Shown here: positions 5,065 to 48,194 of the stretch, in pieces
Layout of the letters: each line of letters opens with the position of its first letter
Numbering within the stretch: position 1 is the first letter of the stretch
Program-made: the position numbers and the translations under genes
The notes under the pieces: generated by a model
Told to the model about the DNA's origin: nothing
The model's database searches: none
The model's input: the letters and a program-made list of their open reading frames with translations, nothing else
Source: Venturia oleaginea
Taxonomy: Eukaryota > Ascomycota > Dothideomycetes > Venturiales > Venturiaceae
Reading direction: 5' to 3'
NCBI GenBank assembly: GCA_013176395.1
Contig: JABMLP010000017.1
Coordinates: 1,178,001-1,242,000 of the forward strand
DNA length: 64,000 bases

Positions 5065-6333
5065 CTAGCCAGAAAAGTCGCATGTGTTACGGGGAACTCT
5101 TTTCTCAACACAGTTGATTATGTCAAGACCTTCTTGACACCTGTGTCCTCTTGTTCTGGTCCGCCGGTTTGGGGTAAGGGCAATATCATTATGGTGAGTG
5201 ATTGACAGCCCTGTGGTGGCTCGTTCAAGATGTTCGATTGCCTTTGATGATATATGTCCGCAAACGTGGTGTGCCGTTTTTCCATCAATAGCTAATGGTG
5301 GTCGAGGACGAGCTGAAGTATGTGTTCTTGGCACTTTTCTGGTGATAAAAGAGCTAGATTGTGATACCTTAGCTCCAAGTTGACCAACTCGAGCTGGTCG
5401 CTGAATAATGGCATCGAGATCTGAGTTTCTGGCTATCACCCACATAGGTCCATCACGCTCAAAATTGATAATGACGTGGCCAGATTTAGAGACCGTATTG
5501 TGCGTGAAGTCCACCGTGTATCCTTTGTCAATGAGCTTCGAAAGGCTGACCACATTGGTGCAATAGTCTGGGCTGAATAGGACGTTTGTGAGCGATATGT
5601 GACGATTACCACGTGGCGAATTGACCGCTAGCCTCACTGAACCACGTCCCTCAACTTGAGTGGAACCAGTACCAGAAGTAATAGCTTCTCCGGGTGATGC
5701 AGGGCTTTCGTGAATGAAGATTGACTCATTATTGGTGATGTGGTCTGATGAGCCACTGTCAATGAACCAGCAATCTCTGTAGCGATTGAGAGCCCTTGTA
5801 GAGAGAGAGAGGTGACTCGTAAACGCTGCAATTTCGCCAGATTTTTGTGGTTCAGGAAGCTTATCAATGACATCTTTGTAACGTGTCAAATTTCGCTTCA
5901 TGGCCTCACTACCTGTGTGCAGGGCATCTCGAAACTTCTGTGTAATCTCTGAGTTTGGCTTCCATCCTGATAGCCTCAATTTGGGTACCAAATAAGGACA
6001 ATCCTTGAAAAAATGAGTGTCACCGTCGACACAAACGAGAGGCTTCCTTTTTGGGACCGAGTCAGATTGTGCAGGACCAGGTTTCGATGAAGCCGTCTGA
6101 TTTGAAGTTGAATTTGGCGCTGTGTTTATTATAGAAGTGGTGGGAGGCTCGCCATTGAGGGTATGGTCAGAGACGAATGCAGAAGCCCCTGGTCGACGTG
6201 TTGCTGTACGTGTCCGGTGGTAGGCATTGAACTCTTCTACCAATTTCGTCATTGTGGTGGGCTTTTCGTCGTTGACGAGGGCCTTCGTAATGAGTACATT
6301 CTGGTTACGAGCCCAGTCGGTATCAACCTTGTC
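5065..6333 (-). pseudogene. Copia zinc knuckle, protease and pre-integrase remnant
   Basis: This is the second half of the retained polyprotein. The zinc-knuckle region is degenerate: the pattern around THFFKDCPYL keeps one Cys and the His, but the second Cys of the C-x-C start is now Asp. The aspartic protease motif is clear as WFIDSGSSDHITN. Then follow a protease-like beta segment with TNVVSLSKLIDKGYTVDF and a pre-integrase-like H-x-x-x-GH segment, AHHVCGHISSKAIEHLERA. After TTGL the true frame is lost by another indel near 5165, and the open frame ends at 5065 in unrelated residues. Confidence 0.78.
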
Positions 6334-6938
6334 TATAGCCTCAAAAAGGCGTACAGAGGAAGGTCTCCGTCGACATCAGGAAGCTTAACTTTCTGTGCAT
6401 CACGAAGGGCTTTGTCCCATTGCAGAAGCCATGTGTCAATGTTTGAGGCTTTGAGGCCGCCCAAAACTGATAGCCATTGCTTCCTTATGGCCAACTTCCT
6501 AGCTCTTTCTGTAGGGGCTATTGCTGACTTCAGAGCGATCAAGATGGCCCTAGCCGTTGTACAGTCATCAATGAGGCTATTGTAGCTTCTAGATACCGTA
6601 GTAGGAATGTCCTCGGTGGCGTCAGAAAGTAGCGACGTGAGGGTTCGAAAGGTGGTCATTTGGTGACTGTATTGTGAGTTCAGAATCGTCAGAACTGACC
6701 GTTCATCGCTAGTCAAGTTGTTGATTGCAGCATCAGTTCTAGTTGAGGCATGAGCTGCTGTAGGAAGGATAGATTCTGTAGGGCCTGAGGGTTCATCCGG
6801 TGTCTCGTCATTCATGTACTTCCAGATCCCGACGCGTTTGGCCCTGGACTTGTGACGGGTATACCAGTCCTCCCAGTCATTTGGAGAGTTGAGGATGATG
6901 TCCGTAACCTTTACTTGTCGTGTAGATGATGCTGCCAT
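6333..6938 (-). pseudogene. Copia gag-like polyprotein, N-terminal part, frameshifted
   Basis: About 200 residues, starting MAASSTRQVK, with the gag-like layout of Copia polyproteins: a W-x-x-W segment near residues 22-25 (DWEDWYTRHK), a helical middle part, and a segment around LSVLGGLKASNIDTWLLQW. The frame ends at a TAG just after DGDLPLYAF. The +1 frame continues sensibly into EAIDKVDTDWARNQN, so one base of a short T-run in coding sense (near 6347-6351) appears to be missing. The following half continues in the next feature. This is a fossil and has no likely cellular role. Confidence 0.75.
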
Positions 6939-8068: not shown

Positions 8069-8549
8069 TCCTACTCGGTTGCAGCCGCTTAATCACGCAG
8101 CTATGTCCGGTTAGGAGGACTTCATCAGACAGCCGACACGTGATAGATTATATAATCCACCGCGCCCCACTTCGCCCCGTTCACTGAAACAAGACCAGCT
8201 GTCCCCTCCGTCCTCCCTCTTTTCCCTTAACCAGTATCTCCAAATGCCCGCTGGCTCTTGTAGATACTGGTTATTCTGCTAGTATATCTGTGCTATGTAG
8301 ACTCAAGAGGCAATGCCTCGTGTTTCGCTATCCTTCTACCTACAGTCTCCCTCTAATGCTCAGCTTGTCTATCTGTTTCGCCTTATCCCTCAAGGCCAAT
8401 GGGTTCCCTAAGTATGTTTCTGCTTGTGAAAGTTGCCTTGCACCAGATTCCTATGCGGCGGTGTATTTGGTTGTGTGATGCTGGAGACAATAGTAACCAT
8501 CGTAGTCGTGATTTCGCTGCTTGGGTGTGATACTCCGGGTATGCCCGTG

Positions 8550-9300
8550 GACGAGGCTGTCTGGTAGCTGCCGTATTGTATGGCGCCGATCGTGCTATAG
8601 ACCTGCCGTCTTATAGTCGGAGCCTATCTGCTGCTAGTCGCTCTCCCTACTTGCTATATCGCGCTCCTACTCTTGCCAATGCCATAACTGGGACGCAACA
8701 GTCTGGGGAGAGGCTCAAGGCTACGTCTGCTGGCTTGTAGGGAGGGGATTTGCCGCCAATAAGCTCCTTCTATACGTCCTTACTGCTTACTGTGTTGCGC
8801 ACCTACTCTTGCCAATGCCATAACTGGGACGCAACAGTTTGGGGAGAGGCTCAAGGCTCTGGACATCAGCTTACAGCAGGACGGTTTGCGGAGACGATAG
8901 TAGATGAGGTTCTCTAGCAGCTGCCGTATCGTGTCGCACCGATTGTGTTGTAGACCTGTCGTCTTATAGTCGGAGCCTATCTGCTGCCAGTCGCTCTCCC
9001 TGCTTGCTATATCGCGCACCTACTCTTGCCACTGCCATAACTGGGACGCAACAGTCTGGGGAGAGGCTCAAGGCTACGTCTGCTAGCTTACAGGGAGGGG
9101 ATTTGCCGCCAATAGGCTCCTTCTATGCGTCCTTACTACTTACTGTGTCGCGCACCTACTCTTGCCAATGCCATAACTGGGACGCAACAGTTTGGGGAGA
9201 GGCTCAAGGCTCTGGGCAACAGCTTGTAGCAGGACGGTTTGCCAAGACGTTGGGAGAGATTGTCTAGTCGTTGCAGTGGTGTGTGGTGCCGATTGTTGCA
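8550..9300 (+). repeat. Nested tandem repeat, 353-bp unit
   Basis: A shorter motif, CCTACTCTTGCCAATGCC plus about 40 following bases, begins at 8666, 8802, 9019 and 9155. The spacing is 136, 217 and 136 bp, so the higher-order unit is 353 bp. Another landmark, GTCTTATAGTCGGAGCC, recurs at 8608 and 8961, also 353 bp apart. A third, degenerate unit seems to start near 9240 and fades out by about 9300. Copies differ by a few per cent. All frames are short or differ between copies, so I do not call a gene. Confidence 0.85.
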
Positions 9301-19940: not shown

Positions 19941-20750
19941 CTATTCATTTGGCTGCTTGCCCTTCGATCTGATGCGTCTCTTGCTCTTCTTGGACGTCGG
20001 CTTGTTCACTTCGGCGTCTCCAGCCAGTTTCTGAAGTTTTTTAATATAGGCGACCAGACTGGCTTGTACAATGTGCATTTCACATCCGTGGTATGCCCCT
20101 TCCACAACCTTCACCTCCAGCTGTACTCCACAGCATCTGAACAGGTGCAGAATCTCCAAGTGCCACCTGAACCGTTTCGTGTCCTCGCAGCGAAGCCTGG
20201 TCATGTACCTTCCATCCGTTCTGATCTCGACGATGAGTTTCGTGGGGTTGCCTGACTTGCGAACGGCAGACATGAAGTACTTCGCATGCTTTTCGAAGTC
20301 CTTGTCCCCGATAGCTCGTGTACTCAGGCTTCGGAGTTCTTTCTCCAGAGACGTAGAATTGATCTGGAGCCGGACCGTCTTAAAGTTGAACAGGGAATTC
20401 TCGAGGGTTTCCTCTGCGGCAATCTGTAGGCGAGCCGGGACTCTACGAGTATATGGAGGAGTCCAATCGCATCCGAATGCTTCGAGTCTTGTCATTTTGC
20501 TTTGACTGAAGGCGGCATCGCGGTGAGCCAAATTGACGGATACGATTACGTTCCTGCCAAACACGTCTTTGGCGCGTTTATTGAGTCGGCGGCTGACGCT
20601 CATGAGATTGCAGAGGTCTATTGCTCTGCTGTGCTGCTGTCTAAAAAACCAATTTATGACTATTGGCAGCTTGTGCGGCAGCGGCAGCGGCAGCGGCAGC
20701 AACAGCTCGAAGATCTTGTCTAGGATTTCTGTAGGTAAGGTGCTGATCAT
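19941..20750 (-). CDS. F-box-like hypothetical protein
   Basis: A single-exon frame of 269 residues. It starts MISTLPTEILDKIFELLLPL, an F-box-like helix (LP-x-E-I-x-x-x-I), followed by an LPLPLPLP run coded by a GGCAGC-type repeat and a segment LCNLMSVSRRLNKRAKDVFG that resembles the second half of fungal F-box domains. The middle has no known domain, and the tail is Lys/Arg-rich (KKSKRRIRSKGK), suggesting nuclear targeting. F-box proteins recruit substrates to SCF ubiquitin ligases; this role is inferred from the N-terminus only. Confidence 0.65.
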   Translation of the reverse strand: MISTLPTEILDKIFELLLPLPLPLPHKLPIVINWFFRQQHSRAIDLCNLMSVSRRLNKRAKDVFGRNVIVSVNLAHRDAAFSQSKMTRLEAFGCDWTPPYTRRVPARLQIAAEETLENSLFNFKTVRLQINSTSLEKELRSLSTRAIGDKDFEKHAKYFMSAVRKSGNPTKLIVEIRTDGRYMTRLRCEDTKRFRWHLEILHLFRCCGVQLEVKVVEGAYHGCEMHIVQASLVAYIKKLQKLAGDAEVNKPTSKKSKRRIRSKGKQPNE

Positions 20751-21656: not shown

Positions 21657-22340
21657 TTTTGGAGTTGATCTTTAAAGTTGAAATTTGGAGTTGAATTGTG
21701 TGAGTTGCGGTTGAGAGTTAACATATAGTCAAAGAGAATATATATTGGAGGTAAAGCGCCGCTGGTGACGATTATTTATCCGACCTTAATTACTACTGTG
21801 GTATCCGGCGGAATAAAAATAGATTCTCGTAATACACCTCCGCAATTCACCTTTGCTTTCGGTTATCCGGTCAAGTCAATCCTAATTACTTACCGTAGAT
21901 TCCGTGAAAAGTTGTACTCAGCCGTGGACTGATCGCTCGTCTACAACCTTGCACGGAATTTACGGTACAGGGTAATCTGATAAGTACGTGATATGGCAAC
22001 GCTCCAAGGCAAAAACTATCTAATATAAGCCAGTACAGTACGGGAAGACGACATTTCTGCTTAATTTTCGCGCGAGTAGATCGAGAAGGCTAGATTACGC
22101 CCATTTGCTTATTTACTTTTCTTACTTTATATGTTACGGATACCGTCACGTGGACATGTATTCAATGGTATTCGGTTGTATTTGACTGCATTCATATGCA
22201 TTCAAATACGCCATCAGTCTGTTTCTTTATGATTGGTTGAATGTCACACAGGATCCATAGGGATCACATGTTGGCACCATGAGCGATCCATAGGGATCAC
22301 GTGTTGGCGCAACGCTCAGGTCATGAGCCATGAGTGAGCC
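21657..22340. other. AT-rich flank of the Mutator-like element
   Basis: No coding is seen. GATCCATAGGGATCAC plus GTTGGC occurs twice, at 22252 and 22285 (33-bp period), just outside the inverted duplication. Repeated GTATTC/GCATTC words are at 22160-22210. These may be remains of the transposon terminus. Confidence 0.4.
22252..22310 (+). repeat. 33-bp direct repeat next to the Mutator-like element
   Basis: Two near-identical copies of GATCCATAGGGATCAC followed by (A/G)TGTTGGC(A/G). The unit is itself partly palindromic (GATCC...GGATC). Confidence 0.75.
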
Positions 22341-22726
22341 TCATCTTAGTATTATCACTGACCGCGGCAAAGGCCTTGATCCAGCCATCAAAAAGTACTT
22401 CCCTACGCCAATTGCTCATCACTACTTCTGCACACAGCATCTTGCAATGAATATACGAAAACATCACGGTCAAGACATCGAAATGATCTTCCGCCGCGCT
22501 ATTCAAGCTCCTACAGTAGCTGCCCATCACGCCCTTATTGAACAGATTCGTGAGTTGAGTCCTGCTGCAGTTATTACCACAGAGAACATTGGCAATAAGG
22601 ACAGATACTGTAAAGCCTACGCGCCACTTGACTCTTACCCTCGCTATGGTCATACAACTTCCAACATTGGCGAGTCAATGAATGCACGATTTCTTGAGGA
22701 ACGCAAGTTATCACCTCTATATATGC
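22341..22726 (+). repeat. Inverted-duplication arm A (386 bp)
   Basis: It reads the transposase middle part in plus sense, from the Asp-containing segment SIITDRGKG to SPLYM. By eye it is identical over 386 bp to the reverse complement of 22888-23273: both strands give the same peptides in the two arms. No mismatch was noticed. Confidence 0.88.
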
Positions 22727-24102
22727 GCTGGAGGTATACGCAACCATCTTACGGCCAATCTCGTAGCGGTCAAATTGATGCTCGGTAGCGTATTTTGTAA
22801 GATATTGGTCATAGATGACTTCCTCCCCGTGGTTGAAGATTGCGCGTGTATGTACTAACTGCATCTGCTTGGTCCATATAGCCTCAAGCATATATAGAGG
22901 TGATAACTTGCGTTCCTCAAGAAATCGTGCATTCATTGACTCGCCAATGTTGGAAGTTGTATGACCATAGCGAGGGTAAGAGTCAAGTGGCGCGTAGGCT
23001 TTACAGTATCTGTCCTTATTGCCAATGTTCTCTGTGGTAATAACTGCAGCAGGACTCAACTCACGAATCTGTTCAATAAGGGCGTGATGGGCAGCTACTG
23101 TAGGAGCTTGAATAGCGCGGCGGAAGATCATTTCGATGTCTTGACCGTGATGTTTTCGTATATTCATTGCAAGATGCTGTGTGCAGAAGTAGTGATGAGC
23201 AATTGGCGTAGGGAAGTACTTTTTGATGGCTGGATCAAGGCCTTTGCCGCGGTCAGTGATAATACTAAGATGAAAATCATCATCTTCTTCTTCCGGGTCA
23301 TCTTCCCGAGGCTCCTGAAGGTATCTTCCAATAAGATTGATTTGTAGGAGCTGAAAGAACCAACTCCACCACTCTGATGACTCCGTTGGCACGATTGCCC
23401 AGGCCAGAATCAGTGTATTCTCGTTGGCATCAAGAGTTGTCGCAAAAAGTAGAATACCATCATACTCAGAGGAGCAATGAGCACCATCAAAGACTAGTAG
23501 CTTCCTATTGAACTGCCAGGCTACCACCATTACTGAAGGAAGAAATGCAGCCGCCTGGAACACACCTTCCTTGCTCTTCTTGACACGCGTGAATGCGCCA
23601 TCATATTCTGACCCGGGCGTAGTAATCTGAGTAGAGATCTCGTCGGTAATAAGGCTAGTAAGTAGATGCCCATGTTGTTTTAGGAACCTAACCATAGGTA
23701 GAATCAAGCGAAACTGCTCCTTGCCGTCGCCATCAAGCTTGAGTGTAATGGCATGCTTGACTCTCCAGGCCGTATTGTACGTGATGTGGGTCCTGGTAGC
23801 CATACGGGCATTAGTCTTGATATGTTTCGGCTTGATTGTGCGATCGTTGGCAACCAGGGTATAGCTCTTTCGGGCCTGGTAACGGGCGCCTTTTGGAGTC
23901 TTCCAATTGTCGTGGACTGAGGTAGGGCAGTTGTGAGGAACGAGATTACGGAGGACTGGATAGGTAGCGCCTTTGATGAAGGCAATACGAGCCTAGAGAG
24001 GTTAGTAATATATAGTATAACTTATATGTTAATGCAATATATCGAGATATATGTGTATTTTGTGTTGAACAGTGGCATGCCAGTCCTTGATACCTCAGGC
24101 AT
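22574..24102 (-). pseudogene. MULE transposase, 3' end replaced by inverted copy
   Basis: Exon 1 (24094-24102, M-P-E) and exon 2 (from 23992 down) are joined by a 101-nt intron with a TACTAAC branch and CTCTCTAG acceptor. The protein starts MPEARIAFIKGATYPV and shows the MULE-type DDE transposase domain: LLVFDGAHCSSEYDG (first Asp), LSIITDRGKGLDPAI (second Asp), the C-x-x-H pair in HHYFCTQHLAMN, and ESMNARFLEERKLSP (Glu). Coding is intact until MVAYTSS near 22730. Beyond that the frame reads the inverted copy antisense and stops at 22574, so about 50 terminal residues are nonsense and the SWIM-type C-terminal part usual in this family is absent. The protein is unlikely to be active. Confidence 0.8.
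22888..23273 (-). repeat. Inverted-duplication arm B (386 bp), native copy
   Basis: This is the original transposase segment in the minus-strand gene. A 161-bp spacer (22727-22887), also native transposase sequence, separates it from arm A. A transcript through both arms would fold into a 386-bp hairpin. Confidence 0.88.
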
Positions 24103-24528
24103 AGTGCACGTGATAGATGCCAAGGAATGCATTGACATGCATATATATGCATGCAGATGCAACGGTGTACTTAACCTCTGCAGTCAATACAGTCAAGTCA
24201 CAGGGTGACACTCGTTCTGTTCATCGGCTCCTATCGTTAAGTTCGTGTTGAATCTACTTCCGAATAACTCTGTTTTGCTCGTTCAGCGTAACAATATCAG
24301 ACTGTGAGAATATTACGAGGTACTAACGGGTCCAGCCTGTACGTATCAAAGATGATATATATATCCGGGACCCCCCCGAACTTGATATCAAATCACCGTC
24401 GTCAACTTTAACTTTCCGCACCTGATTCTAAACCACTGTCCTCAACTTCAACTTCAACCGATCTCAACCTCCAAACTCCAACAACAAGTAAAGAGTTCAA
24501 CTCTATAATCTCGATTCCGCTAACAAAG
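24103..24528. other. Intergenic, transposon flank
   Basis: Palindromic GCATGC/ATATAT words at about 24125-24160 may belong to the transposon end. A CT/AAC-rich segment at 24410-24510 resembles a fungal leader before the small secreted-protein frame. Confidence 0.4.
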
Positions 24529-24840
24529 TTGGTCACAGTGAAGCTCCTCATACCAACTCTAGCCATTCTCGGCCTCTTCGCGCCCGCCTCCTATGCTATC
24601 ATCTGGAACTGTGTTGCAAGCACTACCCCTTCAATCGATTCGGCATACGACAAGTCCTTTAGAGATTTTAGCAATAGAAACTGCGGAGCAGGCAAAGGTG
24701 TTTTTGCATACTACCCTACACCTACGTGCCGCATCGCATCCGATTCTCAACCTGCGTATTTTACCAAAGTATTCCATCCTACCCTTAGCGCCCCTGGACG
24801 CATTGGGATTGCGGTCCGCGTCTCTTATTCATGCAGTTAA
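24529..24840 (+). pseudogene. Small secreted-protein frame lacking an ATG (starts TTG)
   Basis: An open frame of 104 codons begins TTG GTC ACA GTG and then encodes a textbook signal peptide (VKLLIPTLAILGLFAPASYA) and an 80-residue mature part with four Cys (WNC, RNCGAG, PTCRI, YSCS). No ATG lies upstream in frame before a stop. If the TTG was once ATG, the product is a normal secreted protein. The preceding 100 bp are CT/CAAC-rich like fungal 5' leaders, which favours a real gene with a lost start over a chance frame. A non-AUG start is possible. I do not recognise the family. Confidence 0.5.
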
Positions 24841-24888: not shown

Positions 24889-24912
24889 GGGGGGGGGGGG
24901 GGGGGGGGGGGG
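24889..24912 (+). repeat. Poly-G tract
   Basis: 24 consecutive G lie directly after the small secreted-protein frame. The true length is likely uncertain in the assembly. Confidence 0.9.
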
Positions 24913-25063: not shown

Positions 25064-25790
25064 CTACCCAATGACGAGGAGATTGCCATACCAGATGTCG
25101 TCCCGAGGCTTGGAGGCTTCAACCTTCAATTTCTGAACGTACTCCACCAAGAAGACTTCCTTGGGCTGTGTTAGTACTTCCAATGTTTCGCGGCCATGTT
25201 CCTCAACGAACTGGACTTCCAAATCAACGCCCTTGAGAGCCTGGAATGGACTGAGCAAAGACTGGAGACGTTTTTAGTTTGGTTCGGAATTCATCTGTTT
25301 CAAGTATGCTGGTCTTATCTTGATCTAAAGGGTGACCTTTTTTCAAGAATCGGCAAGTATTCATGGCGCTAAGGAGATAACGCACATTGGTACAGTCCAT
25401 TTTCCCAGTAACATTTGTCGGTGGTGTTATAGTAACATTTTTCGATGCTGTCCCGACGAACTGAACCGCTGCAGATTGCGATGTTGACGTGGCGAACATG
25501 TGTGAGCCAATCTGGGAGTCCCTCGTGTTTGAGTTGGTTCAGATAGTCCTCCAGCTTTGCGATATGCGATACGCTTTGTATTAGACGCCCGCCAAGTACA
25601 ATTGAGGCCTCTGATGTTATGTAGCTTCCTCGCCGATACGTTTGCTGCCACACATGAGCATGCGGAGGTCACGTCCAGGCGTTGTGTCCAGAGGTCCTCT
25701 TCCTCCCTCTGTACTGTAACACTGTGACTATTTGGTAGAAGGTATTTGAAAATCTCGAGTCGCATTTCAGCTGGTATGGTGTTGAGGGTC
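25064..25790 (-). pseudogene. F-box-like (2EXR-type) fungal protein, multiply frameshifted
   Basis: Minus-strand pieces in different frames follow each other as one degraded gene. It starts with IPAEMRLEIFKYLLPNS, the LP-x-E-I/MR-x-x-I-x-x-x-LLP start of 2EXR/F-box-like proteins. A second frame continues with HVWQQTYRRGSYITSEASIV, where relatives have a 'C-k-q-i-x-x-E-a-x-x-i-l-Y-s-e' segment, then LPDWLTHVRHVNI. A third carries AMNTCRFLKKG, and a fourth ALKGVDLEVQFVEEHG. At least three frame changes are needed and none falls at clear splice sites, so I call a pseudogene. The function of intact relatives is unknown. Confidence 0.6.
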
Positions 25791-47186: not shown

Positions 47187-47920
47187 AAGTTCGATAGGGT
47201 ATTAAGTAAAGAGCAAGGATGAAAAAACCATGATGTACGATGAGCTACGAATCTGCTTTCCTTCCTGATGTAACATTATTCTAGACCATGCAGTATTCAC
47301 GCCTTATCGATTTCGATGGGCTCCTCCCGTTTCTGAAGAAGAGGAGAAGCCTAGTTCAACAACGGGTGCAAAAAGAGCCGGAAAAGTTATGATTCTATGA
47401 AATGGCGCTCAGGAAGAAAATCAATGGTATGGAATGTAAGAATAAGAATCAACAATACCGCACAAATCACTGCTTCAGCTGTAATCAATATAACAATAGC
47501 ATCCAAATAAAGGACATCCCATCATGCCCCGTTTAATCTTCCTCCCCATCTCCACCCCCTCCATATACTACCACAGAACTCCCTTCCCATTCAAAAACAC
47601 TCCTAAACTCAAATTAAGTCACTGCCCCATCCACTGCCAATTAGGCTGACCCTACAGTTCCACACAACAAGGCGCGTATATATCGCCCTCACCCTAATTT
47701 GCCAGTCCTCTAGTTAGATCGAGGACACTCAATAACGCCTCTTAAGAAACATTTTGTGTTCGCGCGCTTTGTGGACTATGAGTCGTTTCGGTAGGATTTG
47801 ATTGTGGGTTTTAGAAGGGTGAGGACGAAGGTCATCGTAATACTTATTATAGCGAGGAGGGCGAGGAAGGTTGGAGATGCACCAGGATGCCAGAAACGTA
47901 AGATATCAACGAAAGATATA
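47187..47920. other. Intergenic, no gene seen
   Basis: 3' flank of kynurenine 3-monooxygenase, up to the solo LTR insertion. Confidence 0.5.
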
Positions 47921-48194
47921 TGTGACGGCTTGCTAGGCTACTGGAGCAACCACAGTGTTCAAGCACCTAACAAGGCGCCACAGTACACGAGCCATGTGAT
48001 GGCTTGCTAGGCTACTGGAACAACCACAGTGTCCAAGCACCTAACAAGGCGCCACAGTATACGGGCCACAGCAAGACCTATAAGTAGGCCTTGCCCCCAG
48101 CCCCCATTTACATAGCTACCTGTAGTTCACTATCACATTTAGTCAATACCTGATTGCTGCTCACGCCTTTCATTAGTTACTACTAGCCGTGACA
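47921..48194 (+). mobile_element. Solo LTR with 5-bp target-site duplication
   Basis: The 274-bp element starts TGTGACGGC and ends GCCGTGACA, near-perfect inverted termini with TG...CA ends. ATATA flanks it on both sides (47916-47920 and 48195-48199), the 5-bp duplication expected for LTR-retroelement integration. A TATAAG box is at about 48072. It contains a 74-bp tandem duplication. No internal retroelement genes are nearby, so it is a solo LTR left by recombination. Which strand the element reads is inferred from the TATA box only. Confidence 0.8.
47922..48069 (+). repeat. 74-bp tandem duplication within the solo LTR
   Basis: Copies start at 47922 and 47996 with GTGA(C/T)GGCTTGCTAGG and differ at about six positions. 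Confidence 0.9.

What the first reader, a model, noticed from the sequence alone, without database searches (positions are those of the whole stretch)
22341..23273. 386-bp inverted duplication inside a MULE transposase: a candidate hairpin-RNA silencing locus
Arm A (22341-22726) and arm B (22888-23273) are equal in length, appear identical, and face each other across a 161-bp native spacer. Transcription across them would give a long dsRNA against the catalytic region of the transposase. A comparable inverted derivative, Mu killer, silences Mutator elements in maize. Near-identity of arms implies a recent event, and the loss of the native 3' end indicates that this copy no longer makes active transposase.
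Basis: partly seen in the sequence, partly recalled or inferred. Interest (0 to 1): 0.75.

Follow-up and report, generated by a model that had tools for sequence, protein, structure and literature searches.

The report
Fold-back repair scar in dead transposon
A broken copy of a jumping gene carries a perfect 386-base mirror copy of part of itself, most likely a scar left when a broken DNA end folded back and copied itself; it could in principle make a silencing RNA, but nothing found here shows that it does.

Summary
The inverted repeat is real in the assembly: arms 22341-22726 and 22888-23273, 386 bp, 100% complementary, 161-bp spacer. It lies in a MULE transposase gene (PF10551) of a 46-Mb, 61-contig genome, inferred to be fungal. 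Four close copies (98.5-98.7% identical to it) have one arm only. The turn falls exactly on a 10-bp inverted microhomology (CTATATATGC/GCATATATAG) that all four have, with a 160-161 bp loop; there the window copy leaves the family sequence and reads back 376 nt. The outer end of the new arm is joined, with at most 1 bp shared, to a truncated solo LTR. Both arms carry the copy's two private substitutions of that stretch. This is the anatomy of fold-back priming with end-joining capture known from yeast (PMC11724301), so I read it as a DNA-repair scar. Silencing is untested: Argonaute, Dicer and RdRP domains are present, but this copy has lost its 5' region, no promoter was identified, and all four close relatives have interrupted frames (introns not modelled). 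An artefact is unlikely, since two different junctions are needed. An ordinary kind of event, unusually long.

The parts
22132..22340 (+). 5' 209 bp of a solo LTR of about 500 bp (LTR1, TGTTACGG...CGTAACA in longer copies); its remainder, which in L018, L019 and L020 includes a TATA-like stretch, is missing
   Evidence: copies L018, L019, L020, L043; window match ends at 22340/22341
22340..22341 (.). Junction of truncated LTR1 with the outer end of arm A; at most 1 bp of shared sequence (T) when compared with L020
22341..22726 (+). Arm A: inverted copy of transposase sequence; 22341-22716 newly copied, 22717-22726 also matches the native continuation
22717..22726 (.). Inner 10-bp microhomology CTATATATGC, inverse of 22888-22897; the fold-back point
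   Evidence: pair present in 4 of 4 close copies
22727..22887 (-). 161-bp native spacer (loop), transposase coding sequence
22888..23273 (-). Arm B: native transposase sequence, template of arm A; covers ITDRG and NIGES, read from memory as the second and third catalytic acidic motifs
22717..24019 (-). Native remnant of the MULE transposase gene (PF10551) collinear with four relatives; 3' half missing
24020..24062 (-). Internal-deletion scar (about 670 bp missing relative to L010, including an upstream ORF of 86 aa) and a truncated TIR lacking its outer 12 bp CGGTCAATTGCT
24063..24293 (.). Complete 231-bp solo LTR of another family (LTR2; strand of transcription not determined); no matching 5-bp TSD here

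Best explanation
A DNA-repair scar in a dead MULE. A free 3' end of the minus strand, running leftwards through the transposase gene and ending at or trimmed to 22717, folded back and annealed its 10-nt end (GCATATATAG) to the complementary CTATATATGC that lies 161 nt upstream on the same strand. A polymerase extended it, copying 376 nt of the same strand (arm B) to make arm A. The new end came off and was joined by end joining to a broken solo LTR (LTR1); the rest of that LTR and the 3' half of the MULE were lost. The free end may have come from a break or from interrupted gap repair after excision of the element; the sequence cannot tell. Shown: the anatomy, the microhomology in all four relatives, the shared private substitutions, the nearly homology-free second junction. 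Inferred: the strand, the polymerase and joining pathway, and the lack of present function.
For: Arms exact and equal. Four relatives are collinear through the turn; only the window copy turns back. The turn coincides with a 10-bp inverted pair found in 4 of 4 relatives with a 160-161 bp loop, and this is the only such pair (loop up to 400 bp) in the 1303-bp native part of the window copy. The two substitutions private to this copy in the arm region (23105, 23034) are in both arms, so arm A was most simply copied from arm B or its sister, not from another of the four family members. The outer junction shares at most 1 bp with LTR1 as seen in L020. Yeast fold-back insertions have the same layout: 10-bp imperfect inverted microhomology, 41-nt loop, Pol delta synthesis, NHEJ capture with 0-5 bp (median 2) microhomology (PMC11724301, abstract and passages).
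Against: The copied 376 nt is longer than the yeast insertions (2 to about 150 bp, most under 14 bp), and the loop (161 nt) is longer too, so a longer-lived synthesis step or a different setting is needed. Other 10-bp inverted pairs exist in whole relatives (7-13 listed per element, many of them overlapping pairs next to a TIR; 1-4 in the coding part), so the family is not uniquely poised at this spot. No second strain or raw reads could be examined, so an artefact is not formally excluded. Lack of function is an argument from absence.
Confidence: 0.78

Rival explanations
1. A working hairpin-RNA silencing locus, like Mu killer: read-through transcription makes a 386-bp duplex RNA, Dicer cuts it, Argonaute-bound siRNAs silence the MULE subfamily. 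The repair event would be its origin, so this rival concerns function.
For: Near-perfect hairpin RNA; Piwi (12 matches, 11 over cut-off), Dicer-dimer (3) and RdRP (4) domain matches in the genome, counted by exon or fragment; 283-307 of 366 arm 21-mers occur in the loci of each of the four close copies. LTR2 lies next to the 5' side of the remnant and could act as a promoter (inference).
Against: MULE 5' region deleted; LTR1 part with the TATA-like stretch missing; no gene model found that would read across it (ORFs only); all four close copies have interrupted frames (introns not modelled); the three loci tested from the 74% family share only 11-17 of 366 21-mers. No transcript or small-RNA data. 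For Mu killer itself, PMC3440606 offers short antisense transcripts, rather than the long hairpin, as a new model (passage).
Confidence: 0.1
2. Assembly or library artefact: a fold-back chimeric read or an amplification chimera was built into the contig.
For: Perfect arms with a microhomology turn are also typical of amplification chimeras (recalled). No reads available.
Against: One artefact explains one turn; here the outer end of arm A is joined to a different repeat (LTR1) and then to flank without close copies, so a second artefact would be needed. The place lies inside a 1.39-Mb contig, about 190 kb from its end; the arms stop after 386 bp rather than running on.
Confidence: 0.07
3. Two separate MULE copies in opposite orientation, truncated and joined by a deletion (or by nested insertion).
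For: The family has at least five copies, and the four relatives have interrupted frames.
Against: The arms are identical while family members differ by about 1.3-1.6%; 5.4 differences expected, P of none 0.0045. Both arms have the two private substitutions. No TIR-like match at the left in the window. Later gene conversion between arms could hide differences.
Confidence: 0.05

Closest known systems
Fold-back inversions / templated inverted insertions at double-strand breaks (Saccharomyces cerevisiae; PMC11724301 and PMC10622511, abstracts and passages seen)
   Same: Short inverted microhomology at the turn, native loop between the arms, copied inverted segment, second junction with little or no homology.
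   Different: 376 nt copied, against 2 to about 150 bp in the PMC11724301 assay; 161-nt loop against 41; accompanied by loss of the MULE 3' half and most of an LTR; seen in a genome assembly, not in a break assay.
Mu killer (maize; PMC3440606, passages and section 12 seen)
   Same: Partial inverted duplication of a MULE transposase gene, with another part of the element missing.
   Different: Mu killer halves each begin at TIRA and extend 1.298 kb into mudrA, it lies by amy4 from which read-through was seen, and it silences MuDR. Here arms of 386 bp without TIR, no promoter identified, silencing untested. The two halves of Mu killer could not be spanned by PCR in that paper; here the turn is known to the base.
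Fungal transposon-control siRNAs (review PMC3759863, passages seen)
   Same: RNAi domains present in this genome; inverted repeats generated by transposition proposed there as a dsRNA source.
   Different: No small-RNA evidence here.

Membership tests
Mutator-like element (MULE) | MULE transposase domain | tested here: met
   PF10551, 44.7 bits, cut-off 27.6
Mutator-like element (MULE) | Two TIRs with a target site duplication of about 8-11 bp (range recalled) | tested here: not met
   Met in relatives (three of four with exact 10-bp TSDs, L010 with 9 of 10, read by eye); in the window copy one truncated TIR, the other end lost, no TSD. It is a fragment of a MULE, not an intact one.
Fold-back inverted duplication with end-joining capture | Inverted microhomology at the turn, present before the event | tested here: met
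   10 bp, in 4 of 4 relatives
Fold-back inverted duplication with end-joining capture | Arm copied from the neighbouring template | tested here: met
   Two of two private substitutions of the arm region in both arms
Fold-back inverted duplication with end-joining capture | Second junction with little homology | tested here: met
   At most 1 bp against L020; the exact ancestral LTR1 is not known
Fold-back inverted duplication with end-joining capture | Dependence on Pol delta and NHEJ | not testable with these tools
   Genetics needed
Mu killer-type silencing locus | Inverted duplication of transposase sequence | tested here: met
Mu killer-type silencing locus | Promoter or read-through transcript across the arms | tested here: inconclusive
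   Own 5' region lost; ORFs of both strands nearby, no gene models made; LTR2 could serve
Mu killer-type silencing locus | siRNAs and trans-silencing of active elements | not testable with these tools
   No RNA data held; the four close copies have interrupted frames

The most novel reading that the evidence does not exclude
A natural long-hairpin siRNA locus in a fungus, born in a single fold-back repair event inside a MULE and driven by an adjacent solo LTR, that silences its own transposon family in trans; the four close relatives carry the same 10-bp inverted pair, so such self-silencing derivatives could arise repeatedly.
Probability: 0.07. Interest if true: 0.72.

Novelty: new member of a known kind. 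Interest (0 to 1): 0.28.

Why it matters
It gives a base-resolved natural case of fold-back priming with a long copied arm in what looks like a fungal genome, with the pre-event sequence visible in four relatives. It also shows how a single repair accident can create the structure needed for a transposon-silencing hairpin. The two halves of Mu killer could not be spanned in the paper I saw (PMC3440606, section 12), so a locus of similar layout with a known turn is a useful comparison. If it were transcribed, it would bear on whether long hairpin RNAs act naturally, which PMC9757828 says needs exploration (passage).

Tried and rejected
Whole-genome comparison for further fold-back copies: 85 matches, at 40 places by my count (40 of 71 candidates scored, so 31 unscored); only the window place has the arms as two separate inverted places.

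Balanced rearrangement at LTR2: searched for the reciprocal junction (LTR2 end, TTTTG, rest of the TIR). Five hits, each with 2 mismatches: four carry the TGCATTTTGAGCAATTGACCG of native TIR ends (three lie at L009-L011; the one at C4:477696 I did not look at further), and the fifth (C9:860543) has no LTR2 match in the 9 kb fetched around it. No reciprocal product found with this pattern; a deletion or unequal LTR recombination is more likely. Absence of a TSD at LTR2 is only weak evidence for that: 16 of 25 other copies have exact 5-bp TSDs, 9 do not (counted by eye; two of the 25, L059 and L060, are one duplicated place).

RIP as agent: 4 DNA-methylase domain matches exist (whether any is RID or DIM-2 not tested), but private changes of the five copies give 16 C-to-T/G-to-A against 22 of the reverse kind, border noise included, so no RIP bias.

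Relatives in other species: one protein search with the L010 ORF found 5 proteins, 47-64% identical, none named. The collections searched held no second strain that I could find, so the junctions could not be checked elsewhere.

Strand of LTR2: no full-length element recognised among the copies seen; two copies 463 bp apart in L042 have differing flanks; left open.

Literature: searches; only the listed top rows were seen (15 of 43, 15 of 19, 15 of 56, 15 of 17, 10 of 10, 12 of 162, 8 of 30).

Full report
Observation. The window holds a perfect inverted repeat at the stated coordinates: 22341-22726 and 22888-23273, 386 nt, 100% complementary, 161 nt between. A script comparison and an exact scan agree. 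The window is C9:1178001-1242000 of a genome of 46,083,126 bases in 61 contigs.

What the host sequence is. The minus-strand ORF through arm B matches PF10551, MULE transposase (44.7 bits, cut-off 27.6). Four loci are 98.5-98.7% identical to it over the transposase stretch kept in the window (L009-L012). They are elements of about 3.2-3.7 kb (L012 longer, with a nested insertion) with TIRs beginning CGGTCAATTGCTCAAAAT (L012 with one change at one end) and 10-bp target duplications, exact in three of four by reading, 9 of 10 in L010. Further out are 18 places at 73-74% identity and 17 at 66-82%, 40 places in all by my count; 31 of 71 candidates were not scored.

Anatomy of the window copy. Read along the transposase (minus strand), the copy has a truncated TIR next to a complete 231-bp solo LTR (24063-24293), then an internal deletion of about 670 bp relative to L010. 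The deleted part holds the 86-aa ORF that precedes the transposase ORF in L010 (no Pfam match). From 24019 the copy follows its relatives to 22717. There all four relatives continue with TCTTGGTAAGA; the window copy instead continues with the reverse complement of arm B. The new arm ends at 22341, where it meets the first 209 bp of a solo LTR of about 500 bp whose remainder is missing. Left of 22132 the best other match in the genome is 69% over about 350 bases, and right of 24293 77% over about 136; otherwise shorter ones.

Evidence for fold-back priming. The turn is made of CTATATATGC at 22717-22726 and its inverse GCATATATAG at 22888-22897. The pair exists in all four relatives with a loop of 160 or 161 bp, so it preceded the event. 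In the 1303 bp of native sequence kept in the window it is the only inverted pair of 10 bp with a loop up to 400 bp. In coding parts of the relatives 1-4 such pairs occur, against 0.6-0.9 in 100 mononucleotide shuffles each; in whole elements 7-13 are listed, many of them overlapping pairs next to a TIR. The second junction shares at most one base with LTR1 as seen in L020. In yeast, inverted insertions at breaks arise through a 10-bp imperfect inverted microhomology with a 41-nt loop, Pol delta synthesis and NHEJ capture with 0-5 bp of microhomology (PMC11724301, abstract and passages). PMC10622511 (abstract and passages) describes larger inverted duplications from short inverted repeats near breaks. 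Two of the window copy's private substitutions lie in the arm region, at 23105 and 23034, and both are in both arms. One search lists 13 private sites; I set aside five at 24020-24027 as alignment noise at the deletion border.

Age. Members of the family differ pairwise by about 1.3-1.6%. If the arms were as old as the family's spread, 5.4 differences would be expected (at 1.4%) and none would be seen with probability 0.0045. So the event is probably younger than the spread, unless conversion keeps the arms alike.

Function. A transcript over the arms would fold into a duplex of the full arm length (-816.6 kcal/mol against a mean of -261 in 20 shuffles). The genome has Piwi, Dicer-dimer and RdRP domain matches (12, 3 and 4, counted by exon or fragment). 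Each close copy's locus shares 283-307 of 366 arm 21-mers; three loci with 74% relatives share 11, 11 and 17, the last of which also holds a more distant copy. Against a working silencer: the copy's own 5' region is gone; the LTR1 part with a TATA-like stretch is gone; the longest nearby ORF at the left (19941-20750, minus) and the nearest of at least 100 aa at the right (24529-24840, plus) run away from the arms, although mechanical ORFs of both strands exist, such as 25427-25765 minus, which faces them; and none of the four close copies has an uninterrupted transposase frame (introns were not modelled). LTR2 could still serve as promoter; its strand is not known. I put a working silencer at about 10% and the strong version at 7%.

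Artefact. A fold-back read or amplification chimera would explain the turn alone. The outer end of arm A is joined to a different repeat and then to flank without close copies, inside a 1.39-Mb contig. I put an artefact at 7%; native long reads would settle it.

Comparison. Mu killer has a partial inverted duplication of mudrA; its halves each begin at TIRA and extend 1.298 kb, and attempts to span them by PCR failed (PMC3440606, passages and section 12). That paper also offers short antisense transcripts, rather than the long hairpin, as a new model of its silencing, which makes the analogy with a hairpin weaker. This locus resembles it in gene class and layout, but lacks TIRs on the arms and any shown silencing, so I do not file it as a Mu killer-type locus. 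Searches for natural transposon-derived hairpins or inverted MULE copies in fungi (top 15 of 19, 15 of 56, 10 of 10 and 12 of 162 rows seen) listed no paper whose title or abstract start describes such a case; full texts were not checked for it beyond the passages named.

Noticed in passing
24063-24293 and L022-L024, L042, L052-L071: A 231-bp solo-LTR-like repeat (TGTTGAACAG...CGTAACA), 41 matches at 97-100% identity with only 40 of 260 candidates scored; 16 of 25 other copies have exact 5-bp target duplications, 9 do not, and the window copy does not. Suggests recent activity and later recombination between copies.
   Followed up: partly
22132-22340; L018, L019, L020, L043: A solo LTR family of about 500 bp, many partial matches in the genome (40 of 139 candidates scored), with internal duplications around GATCACGTGTTGGCGCAACGCTCAGG.
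   Followed up: partly
L013-L015 and other places: A second MULE family, about 74% identical, with 18 places by my count, many alike in score, perhaps a more recent burst than the window's own family.
   Followed up: no
8547-9199: Two direct copies of 300 bp, 92% identical, start-to-start spacing 353.
   Followed up: no
47920-48067: Tandem pair of 74 bp, 93% identical.
   Followed up: no
5065-6938: Two neighbouring minus-strand ORFs that look like retrotransposon remains; the first matches Pol_BBD, PF22936, the second has no Pfam match.
   Followed up: no
24889-24912: Run of 24 G in the right flank of the MULE remnant.
   Followed up: no
L059 and L060 (C16:54989-55820, C16:30741-31572): LTR2 copies in opposite orientation about 24 kb apart with the same 15 bp on each side, so probably an inverted segmental duplication on C16.
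   Followed up: no
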